Below, one piece after another: positions 5,320-50,448 of a stretch of DNA of 64,000 nucleotides (positions are counted from its first letter, which is position 1; each line of letters begins with the position of its first letter). Location: assembly GCA_025331435.1 (NCBI GenBank), contig JAIWNI010000040.1, positions 1 to 64,000 of the forward strand, in the 5' to 3' direction. A program made the translations under genes and the position numbers. The DNA comes from Choanephora cucurbitarum (Eukaryota; Mucoromycota; Mucoromycetes; Mucorales; Choanephoraceae). The notes beneath the pieces are model-generated. The model did not search any database. It was not told where the DNA came from and was given only the letters and a program-made list of their open reading frames with translations.

Positions 5320-5322
5320 AAC

Positions 5323-5382
5323 GGAAGAGAAAGAGAAGAAAAGAGAAAGAGAAAGAGAAGGAGAGGAGGAGAAAGAGAAGAA
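5323..5382 (-). promoter_or_regulatory. Long pyrimidine tract upstream of the FKBP gene
   Basis: On the minus strand this is an almost pure C/T run of about 60 nt that ends only a few bases before the start codon at 5319. It is probably part of the core promoter or 5' leader. The long purine run on the plus strand could also form unusual (H-DNA-like) structure, but that is inference. Confidence 0.4.
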
Positions 5383-8300
5383 CACAAAAGAGATATCCAA
5401 AAAGTCAAAAGTACAATTATGGTAATAATGTCTATTTGGAGTCATTCGCTCCATTTTAACTTCCGATCGAGAACGAATCAGGTTCAATCTAAAGATGGAT
5501 ACACGTATGCTCTTGTTGATAATATATGCTAGCATTATTTACGCTGAGAAGTAGTTGTGTATTCTATACATGGTTTAGTTTGAGAGACGTCTTGCTTGGA
5601 CTACGAAATTACTTCGACAATGATCTGCTTGCATGAATGTAGATGGACTCGAATACATGATTTAAACAGCGATTAGACTTGACTAAAGAAAGCTTACACA
5701 AAGGAAAATAGATAAGTGATAACATGTTTGAGGTATTTGTCTAGAGAAGTGCTTGCTTAAAGAAGACAAAAGTAATCGCTAGGTGTTCATACTTCTTTTG
5801 GTTTCTATTATATATTTTCTGAATTGAAACAAAGTGCATACCTTTTTAAAGAAGAAGATTTTACTGTAATGGTTAATCTATGCAGTTGATTTAGTCTTGG
5901 GATTAAAAGGGAAAGATAAAAAGAGAGCTTCAACTTATATACGTATTTCGGCTCAAAGAGAACTCAAATTCATTGTTATTTATAAGAAGAGGGGAAGTTG
6001 TTGTGTAAAGAGGATACAAAATTCAGTTTTTTTTCTTTCTTTAAATTGTTTAATTATTATAAAAAAACACCCTTACTCTTTCGATATAATACTATCTCGA
6101 ACTAATGCTCGTTGTTATTTACTACCTCAAACCATATATGCTCAAATGTACAGACTTAGGACATCTTTATAAGCTTGATGAGCATAACTGAAAACTGATC
6201 GAAATTTTTCAGCTCGATCTGACAGTAAAGCTAATGAAAAAGACAGAGTAATTCAAGTAAACGTATGCAACGACAGAATGTCGTTCAACATTTCTCAGAA
6301 ATATTGTTTCAAGTCATTGTTAGCACTCATGTACTTAGAAATAGAGAGAGAGTCAACAAGCTCTCCTATTCGGAACACATTTACCATTATACATCCTGTT
6401 ACTTGCCGTGTTTTTTTTATCACATTGAGTAGACAGAACAACACATCGAAACTGACTGAACGAGTTAGTAAGAAAGATAACATATAGATGGCTAACAACC
6501 TACAGAATCGTATACTCATTTCTCTCTTGGCTAGACAAGCCAAGACGAGGAAGTTTTCTGATAAAAAGATTCTTAAAAGTTCATAACAGATGCTAGCGGT
6601 TGGTATCACCATTTCGCAATCTGAAGCCAAACAATTCTGTTTTTCTTGGCCTTTTATTGAAATCCCAAATAGACATTTTGAGAAGTGGCAGGGAATGCTT
6701 TTATTGAAAAAGAAAAAAGAGATATCGTCAGCAGAATAGAATTAGATCAAGACATATGATGAAGAGCAGAATTACTAACCTTTTCTTCCTGTAAGAAATT
6801 TATAGCAAGATTTCATGCTATAGAGCACAACAAAGGCAGCAAAGGAGCCAAAAAAAAAGAAGAGAAATAAGAATGATCATATCAGAGACTTTCCAAAAAT
6901 ACTTTTTCGAAAACTCTTTAGAGAAGGAACGAAAAGAGTTTGAGAGTGTTTGTGTTGATAAGCAGAGTTGCCTATCGTGTATAACTTTAGGTAGATCAAA
7001 CGACACTTGTATCGTTTGACTATGATAACATCCAAAAGGAATAATGCGCAACTTCTAATATCCATATCTTAATATCTGAAAAGATAGATGAAAGGAAGAT
7101 AGAGAAAAAGCGACCTGTACTAGATACCACCAAACCAATGGCATTCCATGCACGCATGTACATATGGATGTTCTTGACAAATAAAACAGCAAGTCGTTAT
7201 ATCAATTGTTTTTGTCAACGTCCTAAACGATAACAGAACGCTATCTTAAGTATGATTAGCTCTGATTTTAATATGGAAAGTCGAAGCTGTTGCTTTAACT
7301 AGTTCTTTAAATCTGTAACACCTGTCAATTGCTCTGTCCTTTTCTGTTTACTTGTTTGTTTGACATATGTCTCTACGTTCTCTTATTAGCTTTCTATACT
7401 ATCTAGATATGCTTGTTATAAAATTATCTCATTTTTGAGCTGTCAGGTCATAAGGAACCATTGCTATAGGTTGATAAATTCTAATCATACTTTCTTTTGC
7501 AAGTGAAAAACACAAAAACTATTATCTTCATAAACACTACAAGAATCAACATCAACCTATAATTCAACGAATCCAACTTTATTGAAAGCAATCAAAATTT
7601 TTGCATCGTTGTGTTTGGCAAAACAGAGGAAATGATATAGTAGTCATTAAGATCACAAGGCAAAGCAAGGAAGAAAAAAGCAGCCTTCTCTGCTTTGGCT
7701 GATATGACAAAAAACAGCAATATATCCGTCGATGAAATTGCTATGTACAGTGATTATTGAATGCTGATAATTGTGTATTAAGCACGAGTGGGTTACCGCT
7801 TTAAAACTTAGTAAGAAGGCGCTTGTATCGAGGACGTTGTTAATGCACAAAGCCAGCTTTGAGTTTTACGTTTTCTTCTTGCTTACAATAGACCGGAAGG
7901 CTTTAGCTTGCAGACATGACATAATAAATGAAGTCAACGCTTTTTACTGCGTTTCACAAATTAGCAGCTTTGTCAGTGGAAGAACTGTCATGACCAAATA
8001 ATCAAAATAAGAAGAACAGTGAAAAGAGAAGTCAATTTCTGAGCCATAAATTAATAGTGAAATGAATCCCCTTCCTGGCCATCATACTGAAGGAAAGCGA
8101 AGTTGTCAGAAGTGAACAGAACAGCAGTATTTGAAATAGGAAGAAGCTTTTGTTTTTATCTTAAACATCTCCTTCAGAGAGAGGAGAAGAAAAAACGATA
8201 AAACAATTAAGCAAAACAGATATGAGATTAACCCGTTGAAACACTGAGACGAGCTCAAGGTTAGTCAAGCTATGAAGAGAGAGCAAAGGCTTCATAGTAA

Positions 8301-12642: not shown

Positions 12643-15600
12643 ATGTTCGAAAAAAGTGAAAAGTTCCCTGAAGGATGGTTTTTCATCAAAAATCACAGCA
12701 ATGGTTATGTCTTGATGGTTGACAATGAGTCACACGAGACTGGTGCACATGTTGTCCTTTCAAGCTTGCGCACAAAAGACTATAGCGCCCAGCTCTGGCG
12801 ATATGACCCTAGTGGCTATATTGTCAATAAGAAATCTGGCCAAGTAATGGATGTTGCAAAGGGTAAGTTGTAGTCCAAGTGCTACATAACGGAAACCAAT
12901 CCGAATGATAGCGGCCTTTCAAATAATCTTTACAGCTTGTAATATTAACTCCGTAATTTGCGCTAAACGTAGGTTCAGCAAAAGCTGGAGTCGATATCGT
13001 ACAGCAAATCCTGTCTCACGATGCAAAAGCCCAGAACAATTATCAGAAGTTTGGGCTCTCACCTCATGGTCATATATTCTTAACTCAAAAACCAGATTTG
13101 GTTCTTGGCATCAAGGAATCATTCTTCTCTCGTCGTGAGGGCTTGCATGTCCATCTTCAATTAGTAGACAAACGTCATCTTGATCGTAAGGAACAACGAT
13201 GGGACTTTGTTCTTCCTGTAGTTAAGGAAGTCCACGAACCATTAAAGAGAAGCATTAGTACCAAAAGCACTTCGTCTGCCAGCGTTAAAGTACCAGCTGT
13301 CATACAAATCAAGGACGACGGTAAGTCTTGCATACTCAAATCAAAAAAGTATCATTGAATAACCAAGCTTTCTTCTGTTGTTGTAGATACTCGATCAATT
13401 CACTCGAATGCCGAATCAACTAACTCTGGCATCGATCATAGCGAAGCTAACGCTGTCCCAATTGGATCATTCCCTGAGACAGCATTTTTCCTCAAGTCTG
13501 ATGTTGCTGGATTATACATCAGTGTGGAAAATGCATCATCAGTCTCTGCTGGAACTCAGCTCACACTTGAAAACATTCGTAAAAAGAATTATGACAGTCA
13601 AATCTGGACATATGATGCTAATACTCACCGGATTGTTAACAAGCACAGTGGCCTTGTACTAGGTGTATCTCATAACTCTATCAAAGATGGAGCTAGTATC
13701 GTCCAAGCTGCTTCATCTACTTCTAATGAAAAGACCCAGGCATGGATCATGTCCCCTGAAGGAGAAATAGCCTTAAAGCATGATTCTGGATATGTTATTG
13801 GTTTCAAAGAAAGTTGGTTTGGTAGTCGTGAAGGTGCACATCTTTATCTCCAAAAGAGAAACAAAAGTTCTGCTAATCAAAGATTCACCGTTGTCTTACC
13901 CGTTTTCAAGAAAAGCACTGAGACCAACGTAAAGACTGAAACTAGAGGCGTCTTTCCTGAAGGATGGTTTTTCGTTAAGAATCAGGCTCGTGGGCTTGTT
14001 CTTACTGTCCTTGAAACCGGCGTCATTAGTGCTGAAGTTGCTGCTTCAAAGCTTGACAAAGCTAACTACTCGCGTCAGCTTTGGAAATTTGATTCGGGAT
14101 TCATCGTCAACAAGGCTTCTGAAATGGTGCTAGATGTTCGTGGCGGTAAGTTTTTGAAAATTCGATAAAAAGTTTATTGAAGTTCTCACATATCTCAATG
14201 AAAGGCTCTTTGAAGTCTGGAGCAGGAATTTGTCAATACACTCGTAAAGAGAAGGATAATGAAAATCAACAATGGGCACTGACTCCAGAAGGCTCTATCT
14301 TCATTCAAGCCAACAAGAATCTTGTTTTGACAGTCAAAGAGAATGAAACTGTTCGATCCAAGCTTTACTTGTCTGAAAGAAAGCCTGGACACAAAGAGCA
14401 GTGTTGGAACTTTGTACTTCCTGTATTTAGAAAAAAGCAAAGTAGGTTACCAAATTAGGAAATAATGAAATGAATTATACTAATTCAACCAATATAGCTA
14501 CTACTGTCACAAAGACAACTATCCGTTACGCTGCCTATCCTGCTGGATGGTTTTTCATTCGCTCATACTGTGGTAACTCTACTACAGAGGCTCCTTTAGT
14601 TTTGACTAGTCATGAAAAGTCGATCACTTTGTCTTTGCTTGACAAAGAAAATTGGCATCAACAACTTTGGACATTTTCTTCAGGAAAACTAATCAATTAT
14701 GCTACCGATCTTGCTATTGATGTCAGCAGTAAGTAGCATCAGCTTTTTTTGAACTATGCTTCTAATATAACAAACATTAGCTTATGCTACAGGTGGACAA
14801 CTAATTCAAAGCAAGAGTACAAATCAAAAATGGTATATGACCACTGATGGATATCTCTTTTATGGATCTTCCGATGCAAAGCTTGCTTTGTTGGCTGAGA
14901 CTGAAGATGAAAAATGCCGCTTGTCTCTCTCTGAATTCAAGGCCTCTCAAGATTTCCGCTGGGGCTTACTGCTTCCTAAATTTGTTTACAGATCCGGTGT
15001 TCAAATACTCACTCATTGGTCCATCGCTTTTCTTAAGGAGTGGGGTCGTAATGGCACTAATACAAGTGAGACTAACACGCAGTCTGTTGCAGAATGGCCT
15101 GAGGGTGAATTCTATATTGGTGGTCCAGATAATCATGCTTTAGCTCCTGAAAAACTAGAAGATGGATCAAGACTTGTTATGAAGACACTGAGTATTGAGC
15201 AAAGCAAAGATTTCAGATGGACTGTTCGCGGAAACTATTTAGTACACTGTGCGACAGGTCTTATGATGCGAGTCAAAGGTAAGCTTTAACGCACTTGTGT
15301 AACAAGCCATATGTATTAACAGATTCAATCAGATAATTTCACTGAAGGTACACATCTCATTTTGAGTTCTGAATCAAAAGATGATATCCATCAACTATGG
15401 ACTTTAAGAATGAACGGATCAATTGTATCCAAAGCAAATGAACGATTTGGTTTGTCTTTTATTCAGTCGAATGATGCTTGGATTGTTCAGATTACTACAA
15501 CTCTGCATTACAGTTGGAGAATCCTTTATGGAAAATATGAAATGCAAAACAATCAGCAATCATCTCGTCTTATTGGCTTCCGAAGAGTTGTTTTGATTGC

Positions 15601-18600
15601 ATGTGCTTTCCATAATCGTGAGTATACAGTAGAACATTGACGCAAATTTATACTAATAATCTAATAGACGCTAATGTAGAGCGCAAGTTGGTAACTCATT
15701 CTTATGGTGTTTTTCCTAAAGGCTGGGTGTTTATCCGTTCGAAAATCGATAGTGGCCTTTATATCACTGTTTCCGATAAGAAGAAGGGTGCCAAATTAAT
15801 ATTGTCAAAGCTCGATTTCAAGAGCTTCAGGCGTCAATTGTGGAGATATCGCGAAGATGGTTGTATTGTGAACTTTGATACTGATTACGTTATTGACGTT
15901 GCTGGTGGCAAGCTCTTTTCCAATGCAAACATTATCCAATGGAGTCCTAAGTTTTTGCTACAGAGCCGCAAAAACCAAGTCTGGAGTCTTTCTACTGAAG
16001 GACATATTCACCCTCAATCAAACTCTAGCCTCGTTCTCAGCCCAAGTGATAGCAAGATTAAAGAAAACGTTGAGCTCAAACTCGTCAAATGCGACTCTGC
16101 AGCCCTTGGTTACCAACAATGGACCTTCGCTACTCCCGTATTTAGCTCATCTACTCATACAACATATGCTGCTCAACAGGCTCATAAGGATACTTTGACT
16201 CTCGAAAGAGTAGGTGACTCATGTTCAGTCGATGTTTCCAGCACCGAGCGTTACGAGCGTGTTAACAAGCGCATCATAATCAGACGCTGGGGTGTATTCC
16301 CTGACGGGTCTTTCTTCATCCGCTGTGCTTATGGTGACAAGCACATGGCTTTAACTGTCGAACAAAATGAAGCTGGTTCATATCAAGTCGTTATTCGCTC
16401 ATTGAACTTCAAAGAATACAAATGGCAACTTTGGACATTCAAGGACGGTCATTTGATTAATGAGCAAACTGGTTTGGTGCTTGATGCTCAGCCTTCAGAA
16501 GATACTGTGATTGAGGATGAGCAACCTCAAGTTTATCTCAAGCCTAAAGCATTGAACGTTGGTCAATTTTGGGACCTTGGTGTCGATGGAGAGATTCATT
16601 TGAGATCGAATGAAAAATTGGTTATTGGTGTGTCAAATGTCGGAGATGCTTCCAGAGAAGGTGCTAAGGTAGGTATAAGAAAAACTAGAATTGTGCGTAC
16701 TAATGTAGGTGCCAGGGAGTTGATCTCCTTGAAGTCTGAACAATGGCTACGTTGGACATTCACCAAGCCTGTATTCGGTAAGCGTATTATCACTACCACT
16801 ACCAAGGACGAAGCTACTTTGGAAATTGAGAAGACAGAGGATCAAACTGTTGTCGTTAAAGAACAAGATGAAGAAATTGACGATGACGAAGAAGAAGAAT
16901 CTAACGAACAAGAAGTCGATGACGGTGAAGAAAGTGAATATGAAATCCAAACGCCCACCCAAACTCCTTCTTCTTCCACAACTACATCCAATTCAGCCCC
17001 AGGCGTCTCTGTTGTTGTTGCTGGTGCAGCTATTAATGTTGCTGCAGGTGAAACAGTTAATGTTATTTCAAGGTCTAAAGAAACAGAAAAAGAGTCTACT
17101 ATTGCACAAGTTACAGCCCTTGATTCTGAAGTTAAAACAGATATAATCGCCATTGTAGAAGCATTAGCTAAATCTGAAAGTAGCTACAGTGAACCTGCTA
17201 GTCCTATCATCAGTCCAAAGATCTCACCTCAAAAATCAACTTCTTCTAAATCCCAACGCCTTCATCGCAAGGACTCGTTCCAACTGGAAGAAGATTATGT
17301 ACCAACCGGTTTCGAAAAAATTGCTCGTTTTAAAACTCACCATGGTAACTTCCCTAATGGCTACTTCTTCATTAAAAATTCCTTGCATGGTTTTGTCTTG
17401 GGTGTTGTTGGTGATGTAAAGGATGGTGCTTACTTGGCTCTGACAAGAATGAAGTCATCAGATTATGCCGATCAACTTTGGTCTTACAGAAACGAACGAT
17501 TGGTCAACCTCAAGGGTGACTCTTTAGTACTTGATGCTGCAAAGGCAGATTTGGTTGCAGGAGAAAGAGTTCATCTTTCCATTCCAAATTCATTCAATCA
17601 AGAAGACGAAGATCAAACTTGGGAACATAATCCTGAAGGATTTATTCATTTGAAGTCAAGAAGTTCATTTGTTCTTTCATTAAAAGAAACCAAGCGCTCC
17701 GATAAACTTAATCAAATCGATGTCTTTGTTCAAGAAGCTAAGAGCCTGGTCAAGAAACAAGCTCGTCCCGAACAACACTGGGAGGTCCTGATTCCTGCTT
17801 TAATTCCTGTTAGTCAAGGCGAATCAGGTGTCAAGATTGTAGAGTCCGGAAAAGTCGATAAGATTACCAGTTCAGCTTCAGCTATCGTGACCTACAAGTG
17901 GCTAAAAGAAACTTATTGTCACAAGATTACTGTTGAAGACCAATGGCCGGAAACTCAAGGCTGGTTCTTTATTCGCTATGGTACTGAAAAGCATTTCATT
18001 GCATCTGGCGAAACTGCGCAGAGCCAAGTTGGTGTTTATGAGCTTTCAGAGAACATAGATCACAGAAGATTCTTATGGGCTGTTATTGATAATTACTTGA
18101 TTAACTACAAATACATGCTTCGTCTTATCTTAAACACATGTAAGTAGTTGCATTGATTTCTTTATGTAAAAAAACTAACACCATTAATGTAGCACAAAAA
18201 TGGGTCTTGTCTAGCTCTCGCAATACACTCAACCAAAAGTTTCACATTTCCACAAATGGCTCAATCTCAATCCGTACATCCAAAACAATCTATTATATGC
18301 GCCTTATTCGTACAAATTCTAAATCTTATGATTTGAGTGTTACTTCGGACACTGATTGCCTAGAGGCTCATGGATTTGAAATTCATATTCCTGTTATTTC
18401 TGATGTTGAGTATCAGAAAGATGCTGTTACAGCATTTACTTCTGCCAACAGATGGATCTGTAAGCAAAAATCTGATTGGAGTACGTTAAACATTGCCACT
18501 AGTCGCAGAGGTGTATTCCCTCCCTCTACATGGTTCTTTATGAAGGTCGTTAGTGAAGGCTCCGACAATTTGGTCCTCTCTACTCAACCAGAAACCTCTC

Positions 18601-21600
18601 AGCTGGTTTTGAAGAAACTTGACTTCCAATCCTTCCGAAACCAACTGTGGACTTTCAACAATGGTTTGCTGATTAATTACGGTAGCAAGCTAGTCATTGA
18701 TGTCGAAGGTATGTACTAATAATTACTAAATTTGCTATAAAGACATCTAATACATCATCACAATAGGCAACGTTTCTGCATCATCCAAGATCGTTCATAA
18801 AGCCGAAGCAGGTGTCAGCACTCAAAAGTGGTTCTTGACTACTGATGGACACATAGAACTTGATAGTCATGACTATTTCACAATTGGTACAAAGAAAATT
18901 GCTGATGGTGCTGAAGTCTTGCTGGGATCAACTAAAAACTTTGGTTCTGTCAAGTCTATTCATTGGAAGTTCTCTACACCTATCTTTGGCAAGAAGACTA
19001 CCTCTGGTTCTACCGTATCAACTGACTTAGGTTTGACTAAGGCTCTGGAGGATGGTGCTGTTATATCTGGTACCAAAGATGTTGTATCAAGTGATGGCAT
19101 ATCTCAATTGGTATCTACTCCATTCACTAAGCACTATATTGTCATTTGTCGTGACATCTATTTGATTGTAAACTGGTGGAAGATTGTTTTTGCTCGCCGT
19201 CTAATCCTATGTCAAACAAAACAAGAATACCTAGATGTATCTGAAGAATACCGTAGAATTCTTCGTTCTCGTCTCGTTCGCTATGTTGAGATTCATGGTA
19301 GCGCTTTAACTGCCGGCGATCGTCTTGGTTTAGAACATATTATTGAAAAGACACAAGGAATTTTGGAAGAGCAAGTGTTTGAGAAGATTAAAGAGCTACC
19401 TGAAAATAACAAACAAATCGATGCAAATCAACTCAATTTATCTAAACTTGTGTCAAACGCTTCTAACACTATTGAGGAAGAATTCAAAGGTGCTGTCAAA
19501 GAGGCTGGGTTCGATTTCAGTGATTTCGAAAACGTATCAAACCAGTCTCCTTCAGCTGATAAGCAACCCACGGGACCTGAACAGATCAACAGCCTACTGG
19601 TAGTAGTTGATAGTGTATATGTAACTGTTCGCTACTGGTTCAAGACTCTGCATCATCGTGTTGAAATGGCTTCTAAGGATGGAGCTTCGAAAGAAGATAT
19701 TTCTAAAATCATCAAAGAATCCAGTAATGAAGTTCAAGAAAAGCTTTCACAATTGAAGGTGTCTGCCAACAACACTATAACCCACAGTATTTCATTTGAC
19801 GATGAGCAAAAAAACCGAGTCAAGCAAGCAGTAATGTCAACAATTGATGATTCAAAGCAGAAGGTAGAACAGTTTGCCGAACAGCATGCTAGAGTCTCCA
19901 TAGACTCTAAGGACAAATGGCAAAAGACAACAGCAAAAGTTAGCGACGCTCTCTCTTCCAAGGTTGAAGAAACTAAAGTTATCATTCAAGACACTATTAC
20001 GGATGTTGTTGAAGAAGAGAAAGCTATTACTCTTGGTGAAGAAGACGTAGAGGCTTCCAAAATAGAGGTTGTCACCTCGTTGGCAGAATCTAAAACGCAT
20101 ATCAGCACTTGGTTCAACAATATCGAAAAAGAAATTCATTGGACACTTTCTCTACCAAGCGATCATAACAGGGAGGATCTCATTACTATCATTGATGCTG
20201 CAGAGCTTGAAATATCATCCTTGATTGATGAAGATATGATGGAGCTTTCAGTGATCTCTAATAACTTGACGTATCTTTCCAAGACAGAATGTCAGCGCAT
20301 GATAACACATTATATCAATATGAAAGCATATATTATAGCTTATATCCGAAACATCAAAAAGTCTGTCCAAGACACTGATGTTGAAAAACTTCAGGCTACC
20401 GCAATTCATTTCTTTGATGAAGAAGAACAAAGCATCGTATTCTCATACATTGACCAAGTTTTGAAAACAGCACGTATCAATATGGACTCTGACAACGGCA
20501 AGGAACATGCAAGTGTCAATATAATAGTACAAGACCAAAAAGATTCAGCTCCTAAGGTACCTCATCAGCAAGGAGAACAAAACAAATGGCTAGAAACATC
20601 TTCAAGAACAAAAGATTCGCACCCTGTACATCACGTTGAAACCAAAAACAGTGAGCAGAGCCAATTGAAGATTGACGACATAACAGTGCGTATCGACAGT
20701 CCGATTAAAGCAAAGAACACAAGCACAACTGATAAGCAAACAAACGCGAAAGTGAAGTCGTCTGTTGAAGAAGTTGAGACTGACAAGGTCACTGTTGTTG
20801 TTGGTGCTGAAAAGGATGCTGTCATCGAAGAAGTCGAGACCAGCACTAGTACTACTACTGGCAAGCCTGAGCAAGTTGTTGGCATTGTTGTTGACAAGAA
20901 GGATACCAGCAAGGTTGACGTTATTGCCAAGGATAATGACAAGATCGATGTTGTTGTTGGTGAAAAGGACACTGTCACTGAACAAGTTGACACCACCACT
21001 ACTACTACCACCACTGTTGTATCCGACACTGTTGACGTTATTGTTGACAAGAAGGATACTGACAAGGTTGACGTTATTGTTGACAAGAAGCACACTGGAA
21101 AGCCCACCAAGCCCACCAAGTCTGACACTGTCACTGAAACTGTCAAGGTAGGTGCTGTCGGCGTTGCTGCTGGTGTTGTTGCTGGCGTTATTGCTGGTGT
21201 CACTGCTGGCTCCGATACTTCTGCTGATAAGAAGGACCAGATCAAGAAGGTCACCGTTGTCTCTGAAGACAAGAAGACTGATATCGTTGCTATTGCTGGT
21301 GAGCAAGTCGTTGGCGAAGCTGATATTGGCTACATCACTGTTGTTGAAGGTGACAAGAAGGTTCCTGTCTCTAAGGGCACTGAATCATGTAAGTGTTTAT
21401 TTCAGCTTATTTAGTTGCATACATAGATAGCTGACCATTTTCTTCTTTTTCTTTTCTTTTCTTTTTCTTTTCTAGTCGCTACTGAAGTCTTTGACAACTA
21501 TGAAAAGGCTACAGAAACTGCTCACGGCTGGTACATTACCTTTGTTGACAAGGTCTCTTCCTTGATCCAAGGTGGTGAGAAGCCTGAAAAGGTCAGCGCT

Positions 21601-24600
21601 GTCATTGCTGAAGAAGAAGCCAAGTTGCAAGTCATTCTCGATGAATCTAAGCAAAAATTGACTGCTTCTGAATCTACTGTTGTCTCTGCCAACACTGATG
21701 AACTCGTCACTTTCTATGACAAGCTCCACGATGCCATCCAAACCCAAGTTACCACTGTCAAGACCACTGTTCAAGACAAGTTCACTGAAGGTGGCGATGC
21801 TATCACCAAGGTTGATTTCACTAGCACCAAGGATGACTTCCAAAAGGTTGTCGGCAAGAAGCTCACTGAAGCCAAGACTGATGTGATTGAGACTGTCAAG
21901 ACCGGTGCTCTCAAGGGTACTGAGTCTGTTACTGTTGACGTCGTCGTTGAAGAAGTTGAGACTGACAAGGTCACTGTTGTTGTTGGTGCTGAAAAGGATG
22001 CTGTCATCGAAGAAGTCGAGACCAGCACTAGTACTACTACTGGCAAGCCTGAGCAAGTTGTTGGCATTGTTGTTGACAAGAAGGATACCAGCAAGGTTGA
22101 CGTTATTGCCAAGGATAATGACAAGATCGATGTTGTTGTTGGTGAAAAGGACACTGTCACTGAACAAGTTGACACCACCACTACTACTACCACCACTGTT
22201 GTATCCGACACTGTTGACGTTATTGTTGACAAGAAGGATACTGACAAGGTTGACGTTATTGTTGACAAGAAGCACACTGGAAAGCCCACCAAGCCCACCA
22301 AGTCTGACACTGTCACTGAAACTGTCAAGGTAGGTGCTGTCGGCGTTGCTGCTGGTGTTGTTGCTGGCGTTATTGCTGGTGTCACTGCTGGCTCCGATAC
22401 TTCTGCTGATAAGAAGGACCAGATCAAGAAGGTCACCGTTGTCTCTGAAGACAAGAAGACTGATATCGTTGCTATTGCTGGTGAGCAAGTCGTTGGCGAA
22501 GCTGATATTGGCTACATCACTGTTGTTGAAGGTGACAAGAAGGTTCCTGTCTCTAAGGGCACTGAATCATGTAAGTGTTTATTTCAGCTTATTTAGTTGC
22601 ATACATAGATAGCTGACCATTTTCTTCTTTTTCTTTTCTTTTCTTTTTCTTTTCTAGTCGCTACTGAAGTCTTTGACAACTATGAAAAGGCTACAGAAAC
22701 TGCTCACGGCTGGTACATTACCTTTGTTGACAAGGTCTCTTCCTTGATCCAAGGTGGTGAGAAGCCTGAAAAGGTCAGCGCTGTCATTGCTGAAGAAGAA
22801 GCCAAGTTGCAAGTCATTCTCGATGAATCTAAGCAAAAATTGACTGCTTCTGAATCTACTGTTGTCTCTGCCAACACTGATGAACTCGTCACTTTCTATG
22901 ACAAGCTCCACGATGCCATCCAAACCCAAGTTACCACTGTCAAGACCACTGTTCAAGACAAGTTCACTGAAGGTGGCGATGCTATCACCAAGGTTGATTT
23001 CACTAGCACCAAGGATGACTTCCAAAAGGTTGTCGGCAAGAAGCTCACTGAAGCCAAGACTGATGTGATTGAGACTGTCAAGACCGGTGCTCTCAAGGGT
23101 ACTGAGTCTGTTACTGTTGACGTCGTCGTTGAAGAAGTTGAGACTGACAAGGTCACTGTTGTTGTTGGTGCTGAAAAGGATGCTGTCATCGAAGAAGTCG
23201 AGACCAGCACTAGTACTACTACTGGCAAGCCTGAGCAAGTTGTTGGCATTGTTGTTGACAAGAAGGATACCAGCAAGGTTGACGTTATTGCCAAGGATAA
23301 TGACAAGATCGATGTTGTTGTTGGTGAAAAGGACACTGTCACTGAACAAGTTGACACCACCACTACTACTACCACCACTGTTGTATCCGACACTGTTGAC
23401 GTTATTGTTGACAAGAAGGATACTGACAAGGTTGACGTTATTGTTGACAAGAAGCACACTGGAAAGCCCACCAAGCCCACCAAGTCTGACACTGTCACTG
23501 AAACTGTCAAGGTAGGTGCTGTCGGCGTTGCTGCTGGTGTTGTTGCTGGCGTTATTGCTGGTGTCACTGCTGGCTCCGATACTTCTGCTGATAAGAAGGA
23601 CCAGATCAAGAAGGTCACCGTTGTCTCTGAAGACAAGAAGACTGATATCGTTGCTATTGCTGGTGAGCAAGTCGTTGGCGAAGCTGATATTGGCTACATC
23701 ACTGTTGTTGAAGGTGACAAGAAGGTTCCTGTCTCTAAGGGCACTGAATCATGTAAGTGTTTATTTCAGCTTATTTAGTTGCATACATAGATAGCTGACC
23801 ATTTTCTTCTTTTTCTTTTCTTTTCTTTTTCTTTTCTAGTCGCTACTGAAGTCTTTGACAACTATGAAAAGGCTACAGAAACTGCTCACGGCTGGTACAT
23901 TACCTTTGTTGACAAGGTCTCTTCCTTGATCCAAGGTGGTGAGAAGCCTGAAAAGGTCAGCGCTGTCATTGCTGAAGAAGAAGCCAAGTTGCAAGTCATT
24001 CTCGATGAATCTAAGCAAAAATTGACTGCTTCTGAATCTACTGTTGTCTCTGCCAACACTGATGAACTCGTCACTTTCTATGACAAGCTCCACGATGCCA
24101 TCCAAACCCAAGTTACCACTGTCAAGACCACTGTTCAAGACAAGTTCACTGAAGGTGGCGATGCTATCACCAAGGTTGATTTCACTAGCACCAAGGATGA
24201 CTTCCAAAAGGTTGTCGGCAAGAAGCTCACTGAAGCCAAGACTGATGTGATTGAGACTGTCAAGACCGGTGCTCTCAAGGGTACTGAGTCTGTTACTGTT
24301 GACGTCGTCGTTGAAGAAGTTGAGACTGACAAGGTCACTGTTGTTGTTGGTGCTGAAAAGGATGCTGTCATCGAAGAAGTCGAGACCAGCACTAGTACTA
24401 CTACTGGCAAGCCTGAGCAAGTTGTTGGCATTGTTGTTGACAAGAAGGATACCAGCAAGGTTGACGTTATTGCCAAGGATAATGACAAGATCGATGTTGT
24501 TGTTGGTGAAAAGGACACTGTCACTGAACAAGTTGACACCACCACTACTACTACCACCACTGTTGTATCCGACACTGTTGACGTTATTGTTGACAAGAAG

Positions 24601-27600
24601 GATACTGACAAGGTTGACGTTATTGTTGACAAGAAGCACACTGGAAAGCCCACCAAGCCCACCAAGTCTGACACTGTCACTGAAACTGTCAAGGTAGGTG
24701 CTGTCGGCGTTGCTGCTGGTGTTGTTGCTGGCGTTATTGCTGGTGTCACTGCTGGCTCCGATACTTCTGCTGATAAGAAGGACCAGATCAAGAAGGTCAC
24801 CGTTGTCTCTGAAGACAAGAAGACTGATATCGTTGCTATTGCTGGTGAGCAAGTCGTTGGCGAAGCTGATATTGGCTACATCACTGTTGTTGAAGGTGAC
24901 AAGAAGGTTCCTGTCTCTAAGGGCACTGAATCATGTAAGTGTTTATTTCAGCTTATTTAGTTGCATACATAGATAGCTGACCATTTTCTTCTTTTTCTTT
25001 TCTTTTCTTTTTCTTTTCTAGTCGCTACTGAAGTCTTTGACAACTATGAAAAGGCTACAGAAACTGCTCACGGCTGGTACATTACCTTTGTTGACAAGGT
25101 CTCTTCCTTGATCCAAGGTGGTGAGAAGCCTGAAAAGGTCAGCGCTGTCATTGCTGAAGAAGAAGCCAAGTTGCAAGTCATTCTCGATGAATCTAAGCAA
25201 AAATTGACTGCTTCTGAATCTACTGTTGTCTCTGCCAACACTGATGAACTCGTCACTTTCTATGACAAGCTCCACGATGCCATCCAAACCCAAGTTACCA
25301 CTGTCAAGACCACTGTTCAAGACAAGTTCACTGAAGGTGGCGATGCTATCACCAAGGTTGATTTCACTAGCACCAAGGATGACTTCCAAAAGGTTGTCGG
25401 CAAGAAGCTCACTGAAGCCAAGACTGATGTGATTGAGACTGTCAAGACCGGTGCTCTCAAGGGTACTGAGTCTGTTACTGTTGACGTCGTCGTTGAAGAA
25501 GTTGAGACTGACAAGGTCACTGTTGTTGTTGGTGCTGAAAAGGATGCTGTCATCGAAGAAGTCGAGACCAGCACTAGTACTACTACTGGCAAGCCTGAGC
25601 AAGTTGTTGGCATTGTTGTTGACAAGAAGGATACCAGCAAGGTTGACGTTATTGCCAAGGATAATGACAAGATCGATGTTGTTGTTGGTGAAAAGGACAC
25701 TGTCACTGAACAAGTTGACACCACCACTACTACTACCACCACTGTTGTATCCGACACTGTTGACGTTATTGTTGACAAGAAGGATACTGACAAGGTTGAC
25801 GTTATTGTTGACAAGAAGCACACTGGAAAGCCCACCAAGCCCACCAAGTCTGACACTGTCACTGAAACTGTCAAGGTAGGTGCTGTCGGCGTTGCTGCTG
25901 GTGTTGTTGCTGGCGTTATTGCTGGTGTCACTGCTGGCTCCGATACTTCTGCTGATAAGAAGGACCAGATCAAGAAGGTCACCGTTGTCTCTGAAGACAA
26001 GAAGACTGATATCGTTGCTATTGCTGGTGAGCAAGTCGTTGGCGAAGCTGATATTGGCTACATCACTGTTGTTGAAGGTGACAAGAAGGTTCCTGTCTCT
26101 AAGGGCACTGAATCATGTAAGTGTTTATTTCAGCTTATTTAGTTGCATACATAGATAGCTGACCATTTTCTTCTTTTTCTTTTCTTTTCTTTTTCTTTTC
26201 TAGTCGCTACTGAAGTCTTTGACAACTATGAAAAGGCTACAGAAACTGCTCACGGCTGGTACATTACCTTTGTTGACAAGGTCTCTTCCTTGATCCAAGG
26301 TGGTGAGAAGCCTGAAAAGGTCAGCGCTGTCATTGCTGAAGAAGAAGCCAAGTTGCAAGTCATTCTCGATGAATCTAAGCAAAAATTGACTGCTTCTGAA
26401 TCTACTGTTGTCTCTGCCAACACTGATGAACTCGTCACTTTCTATGACAAGCTCCACGATGCCATCCAAACCCAAGTTACCACTGTCAAGACCACTGTTC
26501 AAGACAAGTTCACTGAAGGTGGCGATGCTATCACCAAGGTTGATTTCACTAGCACCAAGGATGACTTCCAAAAGGTTGTCGGCAAGAAGCTCACTGAAGC
26601 CAAGACTGATGTGATTGAGACTGTCAAGACCGGTGCTCTCAAGGGTACTGAGTCTGTTACTGTTGACGTCGTCGTTGAAGAAGTTGAGACTGACAAGGTC
26701 ACTGTTGTTGTTGGTGCTGAAAAGGATGCTGTCATCGAAGAAGTCGAGACCAGCACTAGTACTACTACTGGCAAGCCTGAGCAAGTTGTTGGCATTGTTG
26801 TTGACAAGAAGGATACCAGCAAGGTTGACGTTATTGCCAAGGATAATGACAAGATCGATGTTGTTGTTGGTGAAAAGGACACTGTCACTGAACAAGTTGA
26901 CACCACCACTACTACTACCACCACTGTTGTATCCGACACTGTTGACGTTATTGTTGACAAGAAGGATACTGACAAGGTTGACGTTATTGTTGACAAGAAG
27001 CACACTGGAAAGCCCACCAAGCCCACCAAGTCTGACACTGTCACTGAAACTGTCAAGGTAGGTGCTGTCGGCGTTGCTGCTGGTGTTGTTGCTGGCGTTA
27101 TTGCTGGTGTCACTGCTGGCTCCGATACTTCTGCTGATAAGAAGGACCAGATCAAGAAGGTCACCGTTGTCTCTGAAGACAAGAAGACTGATATCGTTGC
27201 TATTGCTGGTGAGCAAGTCGTTGGCGAAGCTGATATTGGCTACATCACTGTTGTTGAAGGTGACAAGAAGGTTCCTGTCTCTAAGGGCACTGAATCATGT
27301 AAGTGTTTATTTCAGCTTATTTAGTTGCATACATAGATAGCTGACCATTTTCTTCTTTTTCTTTTCTTTTCTTTTTCTTTTCTAGTCGCTACTGAAGTCT
27401 TTGACAACTATGAAAAGGCTACAGAAACTGCTCACGGCTGGTACATTACCTTTGTTGACAAGGTCTCTTCCTTGATCCAAGGTGGTGAGAAGCCTGAAAA
27501 GGTCAGCGCTGTCATTGCTGAAGAAGAAGCCAAGTTGCAAGTCATTCTCGATGAATCTAAGCAAAAATTGACTGCTTCTGAATCTACTGTTGTCTCTGCC

Positions 27601-30016
27601 AACACTGATGAACTCGTCACTTTCTATGACAAGCTCCACGATGCCATCCAAACCCAAGTTACCACTGTCAAGACCACTGTTCAAGACAAGTTCACTGAAG
27701 GTGGCGATGCTATCACCAAGGTTGATTTCACTAGCACCAAGGATGACTTCCAAAAGGTTGTCGGCAAGAAGCTCACTGAAGCCAAGACTGATGTGATTGA
27801 GACTGTCAAGACCGGTGCTCTCAAGGGTACTGAGTCTGTTACTGTTGACGTCGTCGTTGAAGAAGTTGAGACTGACAAGGTCACTGTTGTTGTTGGTGCT
27901 GATGAAACTGAAAGCCTTTCAGTTAACAAGCCTACTCGTGTTCAAGTTATCGAAAAGCCATCTGGTAGTATCGAGGTATCTGCTTCTGGTAATGATTTAG
28001 CCACCGTAAATCTCGGTAGTGTAATCGTGACTAAAGATGCCCATAACTGTAAGTATATACACTTTTTATTTACTTTGTATTAACTCGATTATAGATACAT
28101 CTGAGGTTTGCTCCAACTTTGACAATGCTACCCATTATACCTATGACTGGTTCGTTCGTTTTGTCGAAAAGGTTACTTGTATGCTTGAGGTTGGGGAAAA
28201 CTATGCTGAGATTGAATCTGTTATAGCAGAAGAGGAAGAAAACATCAGAAGCACTTTGCAGAACTTCAAACATCAACTCTCTCTGTCTAAATCACAAACA
28301 GTTATTGAAAACTCAGACCAATGGAGTTTGTTCTACGACAAGCTCGTTCATGTTATTGCCAGTCAAATCACTCCTCTGAAAGAGACAATCAAGGAATCCT
28401 ACGACAATGGACAAGACACTACTTACTCCTACAGTATCAACATCCAGACCACAAAGGATGCCTTTAGAAACGCAATTGACCTCCATACTTCGCAGTCTAA
28501 AGTGAACGTTTTTGAGTCAGCTAAGACAAATGCCATGGAAATTCAAGTCGGCCAGAATGTCGGTGAACATGCGATTGTAATTGATGTCCTCAACCCTCCA
28601 AAAGAAGTCATTCAGGGTGAAATCGTCTATACTTCTTCCGAAACAGCCCAAGCTATTACAATGAAGACTCTTTCAATCCCTATGTTAGAGGCTCAACAAT
28701 ACCTCAACGTTTGGTATGATATGTTCTTCAAGAAAATTCATGCAATTATAAACAACAAACCTGGTGTTTCTGTCGATTACCAAAGGGAAGTTGAAATTGC
28801 TATCGATGACTCTCTCAAACAAGTTGAACTCGTTTTCAATAACACCAAGTCTTCTTTGCGCTACAACTATGTCACTACTAATGAATGCTCAGCTGACATT
28901 TCTACACTTGTCGAAACATCTCAAAAGCACTCTGTCGATTCATTGAATGCAGTCTACGCTATTATTGTAGAACAAACATCCTTGGTAAAGGAAGCCATCC
29001 TTTCGGATAACGATCAATCAGTTCTTGAAAAGATTGTGCTCATCGAAAGTCATTCCAAGCAAAAGGCCATTGATCTTTTAAATACTTCCATTGAAACTGC
29101 AGTCTCTGCTGGATTTGACGGCAAGACTGTCACTTGGATTAAGACTGCGCAGATTCCTTCGTCATTCAAGGATGTCAAAGTATTCGCCTTTGACTTAATT
29201 GACACAGTTGTAGACTATCGAACAACTGTTATGAAAGCCTGGTATACTCTTGTGGCTAAGAAACAAGATTCTTATGGATTTTCTGCCATTGATGTTGAAG
29301 CATTCGTTATTCGTTGGTACTATCTTTATTTGGAAGAGCGCATCAAAGCCAAGTATTCTGAATCCGATGCTGCTGTTCTTTTGATTGCTCTCAAGTTGGT
29401 GCTCGTTGAATTCAAACTACAAATATCTGCTTTCACGGAGGAAGAGCTTGCTGACATGTGCTCTGTATGGTTGAAACTCGAATTGTTCGATGATTCCTCT
29501 TCAAGTATCCGCAAGATCAAGCAATTAGATGGTGTATACACTGTTGCAATTTCGCATGCATTCACTATTCGCACTATGATGGACCTTGCTCGCGCTGGTT
29601 GTCTCTGCTGGCATGCTCAGTTTACTGCAGATATGTTCGCTGCTTGTACTATCAATAATGGAACTAGCACTGAAGTTACTGTGGTCTCCAACACCGCTAT
29701 GCTTCTTGGTCTGAACAACGCGTGCGAACTTGCCGTCGTTTCCTCCAACCCTAAGGTACTCGAAGCTGCTCAAGCCAATGGCTGTAAAACTGTTGCTCTT
29801 GACCGTTTTGGCGATCTTAGAAAGAACGCATATTCATTCGACGTTGAATTCGATGCACTCGACATCTTTGCTGAAAGTTTCCATATCTTCTATGAATCCA
29901 AGACTGTTTCCAAAACTATTGAAGTCCCTGTTACTCAAACCTGGTTTCAACGTGTAATCTCATCAGTTTCAGAAGCTGCTGAGTCTATTAGTCAAACTGT
30001 CGTCAACCAAATCTAA
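12643..30016 (+). CDS. Giant Gellin-like protein: ten β-trefoil domains, tandem-repeat region, HAD-like C-terminus
   Basis: Seventeen exons: 12643–12862, 12973–13320, 13387–14145, 14205–14441, 14498–14728, 14781–15278, 15333–15617, 15668–18139, 18193–18708, 18767–21388, 21476–22570, 22658–23752, 23840–24934, 25022–26116, 26204–27298, 27386–28048 and 28095–30016. These give about 5,415 residues, and all introns are phase 1. Ten β-trefoil domains start with FPxGWFFI-like motifs at about residues 8, 217, 378, 534, 702, 873, 1068, 1419, 1620 and 1790. Each carries QxW-type repeats (QLWRY, QQWAL, QVWSL). Mucorales Gellins are known to have ten related β-trefoil domains, some unfolding under flow into sheets and others binding membranes, so that leaking protoplasm gels after wounding. 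After the trefoils come a helical region (about 1975–2520), six 365-residue repeats (about 2522–4711), more helical repeats and a degenerate HAD-like domain (about 5136–5390). There is no signal peptide, so it is probably cytoplasmic. The Gellin assignment rests on architecture. Whether known Gellins share the C-terminal half I cannot say. Confidence 0.85.
12658..19000 (+). other. Ten-domain β-trefoil block
   Basis: Each domain of about 150–190 residues opens with F-P-x-G-(W/Y/S)-F-F-I, continues with a hydrophobic LxV strand, a QLW motif, an IVN strand and an xxDVxG strand. It then has a Q-x-W followed by an exposed G-x-I strand and closes with W-x-F-x-x-P-V-F. This is a ricin-B/trefoil-like threefold pattern. 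Domain 5 (FYIGG opening) and domain 9 (shorter, FFIRYG) are the most divergent. A Glu/Asp-rich linker with a Thr/Ser/Pro part separates domains 7 and 8 (16840–17330). Confidence 0.8.
20764..27902 (+). repeat. Six apparently identical 1,182-bp tandem repeats plus a 47-bp seventh start
   Basis: Units start at 20764, 21946, 23128, 24310, 25492 and 26674. A final 47-bp copy of the unit start spans 27856–27902, after which the sequence departs. Identity appears complete by eye, and translations in several frames on both strands are identical from copy to copy. Each unit is 1,095 coding bases (365 codons) plus one 87-nt intron (first copy 21389–21475). The first half of the encoded unit is Val/Thr/Lys/Asp-rich with a hydrophobic Gly/Ala/Val segment. 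The second half is helical, from VFDNYEKATETAHGWYITFV to about EAKTDVIETVKTGALKG. Unit borders fall within an exon, not at the intron. Confidence 0.97.
29160..29930 (+). other. Haloacid-dehalogenase-like domain at the C-terminus of the giant protein
   Basis: The segment opens with VFAFDLIDTVVDYRTTV, matching motif I of type II haloacid dehalogenases (FDxxGTxxD, nucleophile Asp retained). It continues with a helical cap and a motif II-like AISHAFTIRTMMDLA (Ser kept), and an AAQANGCKTVALDRF segment like the late Rossmann strand of the family. The expected motif III lysine and the acidic or Asn/Asp residues of motif IV are not visible. It is therefore probably a structural pseudoenzyme domain. 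Assignment is from recalled motifs. Confidence 0.6.
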
Positions 30017-34345: not shown

Positions 34346-35737
34346 TTAAGTGAAAACTTCTTTGTATACGACATTTCTTGCATGGTTTTTAGCATATTGT
34401 GCTGGGATGGAGCTTGATTTGCCAATGAGAATTTTGATAGATTCTTTTTGTCTTATTCGTGAAAGAGCAACATACAACTGGCCATGGCTAAAAACAGGTT
34501 TTGGTAGATACAATCCAGCCCGATCGAGAGTTTGCCCTTGAGCTTTGTTAATTGTCATGGCAAAAGTAAGTCTAATTGGAAATTGAATTCGCTGAAATTG
34601 CATAGCATCAGTTTCAGCAGAAAAGAGCTTTATCTTTGGAATGCATACAACTGATCCAGCAAATGCGCCTGTTTCGATTGTAGCTTCAATTAAGTTTCGC
34701 ATTAATGACTTGACAATGAGTATTTTACCATTACATAAGCTATTCAGAGCATCAAGGTTTCTTAGAAGCATGATAGGTGCTCCGACTTTTAGAGTGAGTA
34801 CATGAGGAGGCAACGCACCAGATTCAATTACATTGAGAACTTCCATAGGATGTTCTAATGATTGTTGAAGATCCAAGGTATCATCAGCACTGTAGTAAAT
34901 GACTGGCTCACCTGGAAGTTTTTCAATCAATAAACGATTGATTTCAGCAACATGCACATTGATAGGCGTTAATATAGCAGAGCTAATCAAATATGATGTA
35001 TCATTTCCAATCCTCAAGTCCGAATTAAATAGCTCTGGACACATAGCAGAAGGAAGATTCAGAAGATTATCTCCAGGTATGAGCATGGAATCCAGCAGTT
35101 TGACGAAGTCAGTATCTGTGGGAAAGAAGTTTGGATAAACTTGTACTCGAAGAGTTTCTGCTGAGCCATTACCAATATTCAAAAGCATATTAGCAAATTG
35201 CTCAAGTTCAAGAGGCAATGATGGATTGTTGCTATTTTGAGCTTGCTGAACACGCATGTTGATTTGAAGCTTTTTGACTGTAAAGGAAGGCCAGAGAAAA
35301 GATCGGTTGGTGCATGCATTGACAACGTCTGATTTACTGCCTTTAGGAATCACAGGGAGTACTTGATGAAAGTCGCCACCAAATGGTACTGATTCAAGCA
35401 CCTTATTTTGAGTACCAAAAATATCTTTCAATGTTCGATCGACTGTTTCAAGAGTAGACTTGTTGATCATTGAAGACTCATCCCAAATGATTACTTTGGT
35501 CTTCCTCAATAATTGAGCTTGCATAGAGGATGGTGTGATTCCACACATTGTAGTAGAGGAAGTTTCCAGAGGTATTTTGAACATGAAATGAGCTGTCCTG
35601 CCACCTGCCATCAGTAATGCAGCTGTGCCACTGGATGCAACAGCCAAAGCAAATCCATCATGATCAGATCGTACTGCTTTCAAGAGTGTGTTAAACAGGT
35701 AGGTTTTACCCGTATCTCCAGGATCACAGAGCACCAA
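34346..35737 (-). pseudogene. PIF1-like Helitron helicase, C-terminal part
   Basis: A 463-codon open frame. It has a Walker A-like DPGDTGKTYLF (normally GPGGTGKT), Walker B IIWDESSM, FGGDFHQVLPV, the motif around INRLLIEKLPGE, MLLRNLD, and the motif VI region FAMTINKAQGQTLDRAGLYL…GQLYVALSR. These are diagnostic of PIF1/RecD-type helicases of Helitrons. The start of the frame is not a natural protein start: an in-frame TGA at about 35743 separates it from the Rep region. The first Walker A glycines are replaced by residues that look like the end of the Rep region. Confidence 0.85.
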
Positions 35738-35743
35738 GACAAT

Positions 35744-36965
35744 TCAAAAAAGCTTGCGAAGAGATATAGGTGTCTGCGTATGAGCAGCTTCATCTAAACA
35801 TTGCTTCCATTGGTTGTCTGATGCAAGCAGACCTAGAGCTCTAGCAGCAGCTTGAAACGTTGGATGGCATGTGCCGTTAACTGTTCTCAAGTGAGCAAAA
35901 GAGGTAACTCCAGCAACATGGTACAGTAGCATACGAAGATGATAGAGCTCTGATCTTTTGGGAGATATAGAATAAACTCTACCAATAGTTGCACCAAAAC
36001 CACGGTGTCTTTTTGCCCATTTTCTTGGTTTTACAGATGTGTGCCTGACATACTGCTCAGGGAAGTTGGGGTACAAAATAGACCTTGCTTCGGGATCTAT
36101 CTGATTCGTTTTGAACCAACTGGTCAAAGTTGTATCTTGTTCAGAGGCTTGCATTAGTACAGCGTTGATGTCATCATCTTCGTTGAAGTACACAGACTCC
36201 TCCCCTTCAAGATGGATAGCCAGTCTTTGGTGTGCAGGGAATTCCTTGTGCATTGGAAAGGAGAATAGTCTCCAGCAAGCTTCAGGAGCAGAGACATATC
36301 TGGCATCGATGAAAGAGCGGACTTCATCATTTTGCTCAACAGACAATGAGGCTCGATCATGGCCTTTGTAGACATACTTACAGACATATTTGACGCTGTT
36401 GATTGATGAACATATTTCAACATTTATATGAGCATCATATTTCGTAGCAAGGTAAAGGTTGTGAGGTACAACCCAACGATTGTCAATGTTATATGTATGT
36501 CTGTTTATAGTCTTTGGGACTGTGATGCCATTGTTTCTCCTTCTATATACAGGATAGCCACCGTTAATGTTAGCAGTTGTCTCATTGGAAAAGGCTTTAG
36601 GATACTTTTTGATACATTCATGCGCAATATCCATACAAACAGCCTGTGCTGATTATTCCACATGGTCCATGAATCATGTGTTTTATCACTGTTCGGTGGA
36701 CCAAAGAGAAACGAATTGAATCTGGTATCTCAGCTGATACAACACTATCATACTCTTCTGCATTTAAAGGCTTATCCGAGGAATCGACAATTAACAGAAC
36801 GTGAGCATGAGGAAGTCCAGGTTTTTGAAATTCAATAGTGTAGACAAATTCAACAGCTTTTCTCAAGACATTCTTTTTGGCGAGATCATCAAGTAATTCG
36901 CGGAGCTTAATGTTAAAGACTCGGCTACAAAGATCGGGTCGATCAGATGCATTTTGACCAAACAA
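35744..36965 (-). pseudogene. Helitron Rep (HUH endonuclease) region, frameshifted
   Basis: The frame 36618–36965 contains FVYTIEFQKPGLPHAHVLL, whose HAH is the metal-binding HUH motif. The adjoining frame 35744–36634 continues with KYPKAFSNETTANINGGYP, VVPHNLYLATKYDAHIN and VKYVCKYVYKGHD, where the tyrosines match the two-tyrosine catalytic motif. These parts nick and join DNA in rolling-circle transposition. The two frames overlap in different phases, showing a frameshift near 36630. Confidence 0.8.
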
Positions 36966-50346: not shown

Positions 50347-50448
50347 AAAAAACCAAGAAAACAGTAGAAAAGGACAAAACCACAAAAACAATAGAAAACT
50401 AATAAACACCAAAAATATTTATTTGATACTTCCTCCCAATAACTCGAC

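What the first reader, a model, noticed from the sequence alone, without database searches (positions are those of the whole stretch)
12643..30016. A Gellin-like wound-gelation protein extended to about 5,400 residues
Exactly ten β-trefoil domains can be counted, the number described for Mucorales Gellins, which unfold under flow and gel leaking protoplasm. Here the trefoils are followed by about 3,400 further residues: a helical region, six perfect repeats, more helical repeats and a HAD-like domain. If transcribed as one unit, it is among the longest fungal proteins and would join a flow-sensing part to a long repetitive tether in one chain.
Basis: partly seen in the sequence, partly recalled or inferred. 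Interest (0 to 1): 0.9.

Follow-up and report, generated by a model that had tools for sequence, protein, structure and literature searches.

The report
Complete giant fungal wound-gel protein
The window holds a complete gene model for a Gellin-like protein of about 5,400 amino acids, a family thought to gel leaking protoplasm in wounded mould filaments; its long second half is not an oddity of this species but is shared by relatives across the order, and usually ends in an enzyme-like domain that lacks catalytic residues.

Summary
A 17-exon model from 12643 to 30016 reads through as one 5,415-residue protein with exactly ten trefoils, about 3,480 further residues, six exact 1,182-bp repeats and a HAD-like end. 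The organism is Choanephora cucurbitarum (Mucorales), by matching contig length and protein.

The Gellin reading is supported: trefoils match other Mucorales proteins by position in 198 of 200 comparisons; residues 1-195 are 75.9% identical to the solved domain 6lci 'mdaA-1'. That 6lci is a Gellin domain is inferred.

'Extended' is not supported. Of 29 proteins over 3,500 residues with nine or more trefoils (this one included), 29 have helical modules and 25 the HAD end; of these 25, this is seventh shortest (3,725-7,751). In its clade 11 of 12 other rows lack the end, this gene's own deposited model among them.

New here, as far as I could check: the tail is an array of one four-helix module, without a Pfam match over cut-off in the stretches scanned, on disordered-looking linkers that often carry Gly/Ala/Val segments, amplified in tandem in several lineages, usually capped by a degenerate HAD domain. 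What the tail does is inference.

The parts
12643..30016 (+). Whole gene, 17 exons, 5,415 residues; clade A Gellin-like protein
   Evidence: Gene model; tree; deposited partial model P0001
12661..18999 (+). Ten beta-trefoil domains: 12661-13229, 13464-13919, 13947-14437, 14533-14992, 15089-15544, 15706-16152, 16291-16785, 17344-17805, 17941-18404, 18510-18999 (introns included)
   Evidence: Profile, mapped to the window; Pfam PF14200/PF00652 in the two trefoil stretches scanned; first domain matches 6lci
16993..17049 (+). Gly/Ala/Val-rich hydrophobic stretch in the linker between trefoils 7 and 8
   Evidence: Hydropathy 1.49 (under the 1.6 cut used); position
19600..20442 (+). Helical modules 1 and 2
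   Evidence: Module profile; position
20764..27902 (+). Exact tandem array, period 1,182 bp, 6.04 copies, each with an 87-nt intron; carries helical modules 3-8
   Evidence: Self-comparison; introns; modules
21148..27114 (+). Six copies of the hydrophobic Gly/Ala/Val segment, starting at 21148, 22330, 23512, 24694, 25876 and 27058, 57 bases each
28115..29074 (+). Helical modules 9 and 10, predicted four-helix bundles
29144..29980 (+). HAD-like domain without the catalytic lysine and the motif IV acid
29939..30013 (+). C-terminal helix whose sequence is conserved in near relatives; low model confidence
   Evidence: Alignment; model (pLDDT under 50); position

Best explanation
This is the complete clade A Gellin-type gene of Choanephora cucurbitarum. 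Shown: ten trefoils that match other Mucorales proteins position by position; a tail with ten copies of one helical module; linkers that are predicted to be disordered in the one unit modelled; a degenerate HAD-like domain at the end. Inferred, from the published account of Gellins as I recall its abstract: when a hypha is cut, flow unfolds some trefoils, which associate into sheets and gel the protoplasm. Inferred by me, with probability about 0.35: the tail is an extensible multivalent tether, in which helical bundles on disordered linkers give length and can unfold under load, the Gly/Ala/Val segments bind membranes or each other, and the terminal HAD-like domain is a docking domain, not an enzyme. 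The confidence given is for identity and architecture.
For: One open gene model. Ten trefoils; same-position best hits in 198 of 200 comparisons with 20 proteins (P0001, the same gene, and the chytrid P0026 were left out of the 200). 75.9% identity to 6lci over 195 residues, while 6lci is 95.5% identical to the Mucor ambiguus member P0003. Tree: window in a 13-row clade with Mucor and Gilbertella, SH-aLRT 100. Tail shared: of 29 long proteins (window included) 29 have modules and 25 the HAD end; among the 22 proteins that had no part in building the profiles, 22 have modules and 20 the HAD end. In four species with both ends at hand, the HAD domain is 72.2, 53.1, 55.4 and 56.2% identical to the window, the trefoils 66.4, 62.6, 58.5 and 55.8%, the helical parts 24-39%, so the far end is under selection. 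Model of one repeat unit: helical bundle for residues 1-143, the other 221 residues with pLDDT under 50. HAD: nucleophile Asp in 36 of 36 rows, Lys at the aligned column in 0 of 36, the D193-equivalent acid in 0 of 36 (16 of 16, 0 and 0).
Against: No transcript, protein or phenotype data were seen. The link of 6lci to the Gellin paper is inference. The Gly/Ala/Val segments are not universal: 22 of 58 proteins have none by the criterion, among them the complete P0012 (Sporodiniella), P0015 (Phycomyces), P0024 (Backusella) and P0036 (Blakeslea), and P0020, the other paralogue of this genome as deposited. Six of 36 HAD rows have a Lys within three columns of the aligned one. Several relatives are deposited as two gene models. 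A docking or tether role has no direct evidence.
Confidence: 0.88

Rival explanations
1. Two genes: a trefoil gene that ends in or before the repeats, and a separate helical-HAD gene downstream.
For: C-terminal halves stand alone as deposited models in Mucor saturninus, M. mucedo, Parasitella, Rhizopus delemar, R. microsporus, Pilobolus and Backusella, and N-terminal halves in Parasitella, both Rhizopus species and Pilobolus. The deposited model of this gene ends at residue 2,396 of mine. Retention of the 87-nt intron brings a stop codon.
Against: Three of the eight C-terminal models (P0028, P0029, P0033) start at position 25 of a helical module, i.e. inside a domain. Parasitella's two halves come from contigs of the same length, 190,476. 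25 of 29 long proteins run through to the HAD domain. All 16 introns of the model are GT-AG and keep the frame.
Confidence: 0.07
2. The six identical units are an assembly artefact, or their number is wrong.
For: No mismatch in 5,957 compared bases, introns included; no reads available; one assembly.
Against: Tandem units in the tail of other genera: period 338 residues at 96% between residues 2131 and 4819 in Cunninghamella blakesleeana, 418 and 226 in C. echinulata, 184 in Absidia, 186 at 94% in Zychaea and 255 at 93% in Hesseltinella. Period, intron and frame are self-consistent here.
Confidence: 0.15
3. An ordinary ricin-B lectin that binds sugars outside the cell.
For: Pfam names RicinB_lectin_2 and Ricin_B_lectin; two relatives are annotated carbohydrate-binding module family 13.
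Against: Ricin-type structures match residues 1-1018 at E 2.2e-7 or weaker, against 3.6e-94 for 6lci. Trefoils are closest to the same position in Gellin-type proteins. The protein begins MFEKSEKFPEGWFFIKN, straight into trefoil 1, which leaves no room for a signal peptide (my reading).
Confidence: 0.04
4. The terminal HAD domain is still an active enzyme.
For: Nucleophile Asp kept in 36 of 36 rows; the domain is conserved to about the level of the trefoils.
Against: The motif IV acid is absent at the aligned column in 36 of 36 rows and the Lys in 36 of 36. The Lys column lies in a gapped loop, and six rows have a Lys within three columns, so the missing acid is the firmer result.
Confidence: 0.1

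Closest known systems
Gellins of Mucorales (Nguyen et al. 2021, Curr Biol 31:271; not held by the library, abstract recalled; a summary seen in passages of PMC12712441)
   Same: Ten related trefoils (recalled) in Mucorales; trefoils match family members by position; first domain close to the solved 6lci
   Different: Nothing shown to differ from other long deposited members. Gelation and membrane binding not testable here.
Paralogue on contig C319 of the same genome (EDC96DRAFT_292308, P0020)
   Same: Ten trefoils, helical modules, HAD-like end in the genome
   Different: Another clade; 16 modules in the deposited part; no internal repeat at 80% or more; no Gly/Ala/Val segment by the strict criterion; longer, about 5,987 residues
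L-2-haloacid dehalogenase / cis-epoxysuccinate hydrolase branch of the HAD superfamily (3umg, 8wbm)
   Same: Fold and nucleophile Asp
   Different: Lacks the catalytic Lys and motif IV acid at the aligned columns; sits at the end of a giant protein
Four-helix bundles such as apolipoprotein E and vinculin

Membership tests
Gellin | Ten related beta-trefoil (Gll) domains (recalled) | tested here: met
   exactly ten
Gellin | Each trefoil corresponds one to one to a trefoil of other members | tested here: met
   198 of 200; both misses are trefoil 10 (P0015, P0022)
Gellin | Close to an experimentally studied Gellin domain | tested here: inconclusive
   75.9% identity to 6lci 'mdaA-1'; no call states that 6lci is a Gellin domain
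Gellin | Found in Mucoromycota (recalled) | tested here: met
   Choanephora cucurbitarum, Mucorales
Gellin | Unfolds and assembles under flow; binds membranes; loss causes bleeding (recalled) | not testable with these tools
   Needs protein and mutant work
HAD superfamily hydrolase | HAD fold | tested here: met
   Foldseek E 1.2e-9 to 3umg
HAD superfamily hydrolase | Catalytic Asp nucleophile | tested here: met
   36 of 36 rows
HAD superfamily hydrolase | Motif IV acid | tested here: not met
   0 of 36 at the column of D193 of 8wbm
HAD superfamily hydrolase | Catalytic Lys | tested here: not met
   0 of 36 at the aligned column; six of 36 rows have a Lys within three columns, the window row does not; gapped loop
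Ricin-B lectin | Beta-trefoil of the ricin type by sequence | tested here: met
   Pfam PF14200, PF00652 over cut-off
Ricin-B lectin | Sugar binding | not tested
   No binding-site analysis made

The most novel reading that the evidence does not exclude
Gellins are two-part mechanical polymers: a flow-triggered trefoil head joined to a long chain of force-yielding four-helix bundles whose linkers carry repeated Gly/Ala/Val segments that grip membranes or each other, closed by a pseudo-enzyme docking domain. Tail length is set by recent, lineage-specific unequal exchange of repeat units, here frame-neutral exon-plus-intron units, so that gel strength could vary between species and strains with repeat number.
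Probability: 0.27. Interest if true: 0.75.

Novelty: new member of a known kind. Interest (0 to 1): 0.5.

Why it matters
If the tail is a working half of Gellins, then experiments on isolated trefoils describe only part of the machine. The tail module, the linker segments and the degenerate HAD end give testable parts for how a wound gel is tied together, and exact repeats offer a reason why database models of this clade are mostly cut short. It would also offer a natural design for flow-responsive protein materials.

Tried and rejected
Uniqueness of the long form: rejected. Ordinary lectin: rejected by the ranking of matches. A known domain for the tail module: no Pfam family over cut-off in the three tail stretches scanned; a sub-threshold apolipoprotein match in the relative P0055; no Foldseek match at E 0.001 or better for the repeat unit; VIA matches are common bundles. 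Relatives of the HAD domain or of the tail module as free-standing short proteins, and in other phyla, were not searched for as such. Gly/Ala/Val segments as a universal feature: rejected, 36 of 58 proteins have at least one, 22 none. The chytrid protein P0026 with ten profile matches is not taken as an orthologue: its trefoils do not match by position and its branch is very long. Exceptions among Mucorales: P0025 (Lichtheimia) has three trefoils and nine modules, P0054 eleven trefoil matches, P0024 nine.

Literature: the Gellin paper is not held. In the listings of searches I saw no title or abstract start that describes a Gellin tail; of papers I saw only passages, of PMC12712441, PMC10023807 and PMC11842775 (a reference-list entry). 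I cannot say that the tail is unpublished. One search for the assembly method led nowhere.

The structure models are weak overall (mean pLDDT 68.1 and 49.3, alignments of 9 and 8 rows); only the helical bundles and the general HAD fold are used. Two searches scored only the candidates that share most words, and candidates are limited in length by the query, so the length range given is of what these searches could return.

Full report
What is there. The gene on the + strand from 12643 to 30016 can be read with 16 GT-AG introns (46-110 nt) as one frame of 5,415 residues. Six of these introns are identical 87-nt copies inside a tandem array in which bases 20764-26720 equal the bases 1,182 further on without mismatch. 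Because each unit holds 1,095 coding bases and its own intron, adding or losing a unit keeps the frame. The window lies on a contig of 249,194 bases of a 33.4-Mb genome in 357 contigs. The deposited protein P0001, from a contig of the same length, names it Choanephora cucurbitarum EDC96DRAFT_444829, 'partial', 2,361 residues; its end is residue 2,396 of my model, before the exact repeats.

Trefoils. Ten domains were found by inspection and alignment and again by an iterated profile. Against 20 proteins with ten trefoils, the best match of each window trefoil is the trefoil at the same position in 198 of 200 cases; both misses are trefoil 10. P0001 (the same gene) and the chytrid P0026 also have ten matches and were left out of that count. 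Residues 1-1018 were compared with solved structures: the best is 6lci 'mdaA-1' (E 3.6e-94), far ahead of ricin-type proteins (2.2e-7 and weaker). 6lci is 75.9% identical to the window protein and 95.5-96.0% to the Mucor ambiguus and M. bainieri members. From memory, an NMR author is on the Gellin paper; that 6lci comes from it is my inference.

Clades. A tree of the trefoil part (37 rows chosen from the 58 proteins, quick method, SH-aLRT only, with the very long P0026 branch included) puts the window with Gilbertella, Mucor, Parasitella, Benjaminiella, Cokeromyces, Rhizopus, Sporodiniella and Pilobolus in a 13-row clade (support 100), and the second Choanephora gene, on contig C319, in another clade of 11 rows (100). 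I call these A and B. Of the 12 other rows of clade A, only P0012 from Sporodiniella (4,033 residues) reaches the HAD end; 11 do not, P0001 among them.

The tail. A profile built from five stretches of the window's tail and iterated on 36 proteins finds ten modules in the window protein and modules in 33 of those 36. The three without are P0017, which is cut at the start of trefoil 10, and two from outside Mucorales (P0026, P0027). Applied to 22 further proteins, which were found through trefoils alone and had no part in building it, it finds modules in 22 of 22; a HAD profile hits 20 of 22 (the two misses, P0053 and P0055, have no source name and five trefoils each). Of all 58 proteins (not independent: P0001 is this same gene, and some species appear twice), 29 are longer than 3,500 residues with nine or more trefoils; 29 have two or more modules and 25 the HAD domain. 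Wherever it is present, its last matched residue is 1-13 residues from the end. The four without it are P0010, P0018, P0019 and P0020; for P0020 the domain is in the genome, and the deposited end is out of frame for 56 residues. The 25 with a HAD end are 3,725 to 7,751 residues long, median 5,885; the window protein is seventh shortest.

Structure. AlphaFold2 on the last exon (9 rows, mean pLDDT 68.1) gives two sets of four long helices and a HAD-like domain; the 50 Foldseek matches shown, out of 82 at E 0.001 or better, are haloacid dehalogenases and related hydrolases. On one repeat unit (8 rows, mean 49.3) the first 143 residues form a helical bundle at 71-92 and the other 221 residues are under 50. 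No structure matched the unit at E 0.001 or better; the second look lists designed and common bundles, which shows an arrangement and no kinship.

The HAD domain is degenerate. In 36 rows aligned with 8wbm the nucleophile Asp is in 36 of 36, Lys at the aligned column in 0 of 36 and the D193-equivalent acid in 0 of 36 (the first 16 rows gave the same). The Lys column lies in a gapped loop and six rows have a Lys within three columns, so the missing acid is the firmer result. In Parasitella, Rhizopus microsporus, Pilobolus and Sporodiniella, identity to the window is 72.2, 53.1, 55.4 and 56.2% for HAD against 66.4, 62.6, 58.5 and 55.8% for trefoils, while helical parts are at 24-39%. HAD is thus higher than the trefoils in two species and lower in two. 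This is the best evidence that translation reaches the end.

Hydrophobic segments. Each repeat unit holds a stretch of Val, Gly and Ala with hydropathy 2.12. By a strict definition (19 residues, hydropathy at least 1.6, at least 80% G, A, V, I, at least two G) there are 182 in 58 proteins, and none of them is centred in a trefoil, module or HAD domain, which together make up 149,191 residues. 36 of 58 proteins have at least one, 22 none. Shuffled tail linkers gave 0.04 or fewer per protein among the 36 proteins (P0017 was too short to shuffle). The complete P0012, P0015, P0024 and P0036 have none, so the segment is common but not required.

Repeat arrays. By one rule (periods 20-699, windows of 60 at 80% identity) 9 of 23 proteins and 5 of 22 have internal repeats. 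The larger ones are the window (365 residues, 98.7% over the span measured), Cunninghamella blakesleeana (338, 96%), C. echinulata (418 and 226), Absidia (184), Zychaea (186, 94%) and Hesseltinella (255, 93%). The window's unit is only about 21-25% identical to stretches of the Cunninghamella and Absidia tails. Among the 11 clade B rows of the tree only Backusella P0024 shows a repeat, of 51 residues. I read this as repeated local amplification within lineages, mostly outside clade B; it may also explain cut gene models.

One gene or two. Split models exist, but three of eight C-terminal models begin inside a module, Parasitella's two halves are from contigs of one length, 190,476, and 25 of 29 long proteins are continuous. 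Transcripts would decide.

Mechanism. Flow-triggered gelation by trefoils is taken from my memory of the abstract of Nguyen et al. 2021, which the library does not hold; a review passage confirms that Mucorales have Gellin proteins whose activation during disturbance results in protoplasmic gelation (PMC12712441). The tether reading of the tail rests on anatomy alone.

Verdict. What was thought special, the extension, is the ordinary form among long deposited relatives. The tail's make-up and its degenerate HAD end are the parts worth an experiment.

Noticed in passing
contig C319 of the same genome, L010, L011, L017: Clade B paralogue; the deposited protein P0020 ends out of frame for its last 56 residues, while the genome continues to a HAD-like end.
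   Followed up: partly
C289 near 200 kb, C296 near 27 kb, C326 near 3 kb (L009, L013, L014): Three further places that each seem to hold one trefoil of this type; no helical module was found in the 20 kb fetched around each.
   Followed up: partly
P0026 (Nowakowskiella sp., a chytrid): A 2,276-residue protein with ten matches to the trefoil profile but no position-by-position match and no tail module; multi-trefoil proteins exist outside Mucorales.
   Followed up: partly
window 46061-51786 (+): Retrotransposon-like reading frames: gag with zinc knuckle, protease, reverse transcriptase, RNase H and integrase, in three successive open frames.
   Followed up: no
window 34349-36634 (-): PIF1-like helicase frame, next to a frame of 296 residues without a Pfam match.
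   Followed up: no
window 53423-54235 (-), 59797-60834 (+), 61122-62772 (-): 2-oxoacid dehydrogenase acyltransferase, class I tRNA synthetase (W/Y) and endonuclease/exonuclease/phosphatase family frames.
   Followed up: no
P0051 and P0055: Precomputed Pfam label apolipoprotein (PF01442) on two Gellin-type proteins; in P0055 it lies at 2176-2319, 24.6 bits against a cut-off of 90.
   Followed up: partly
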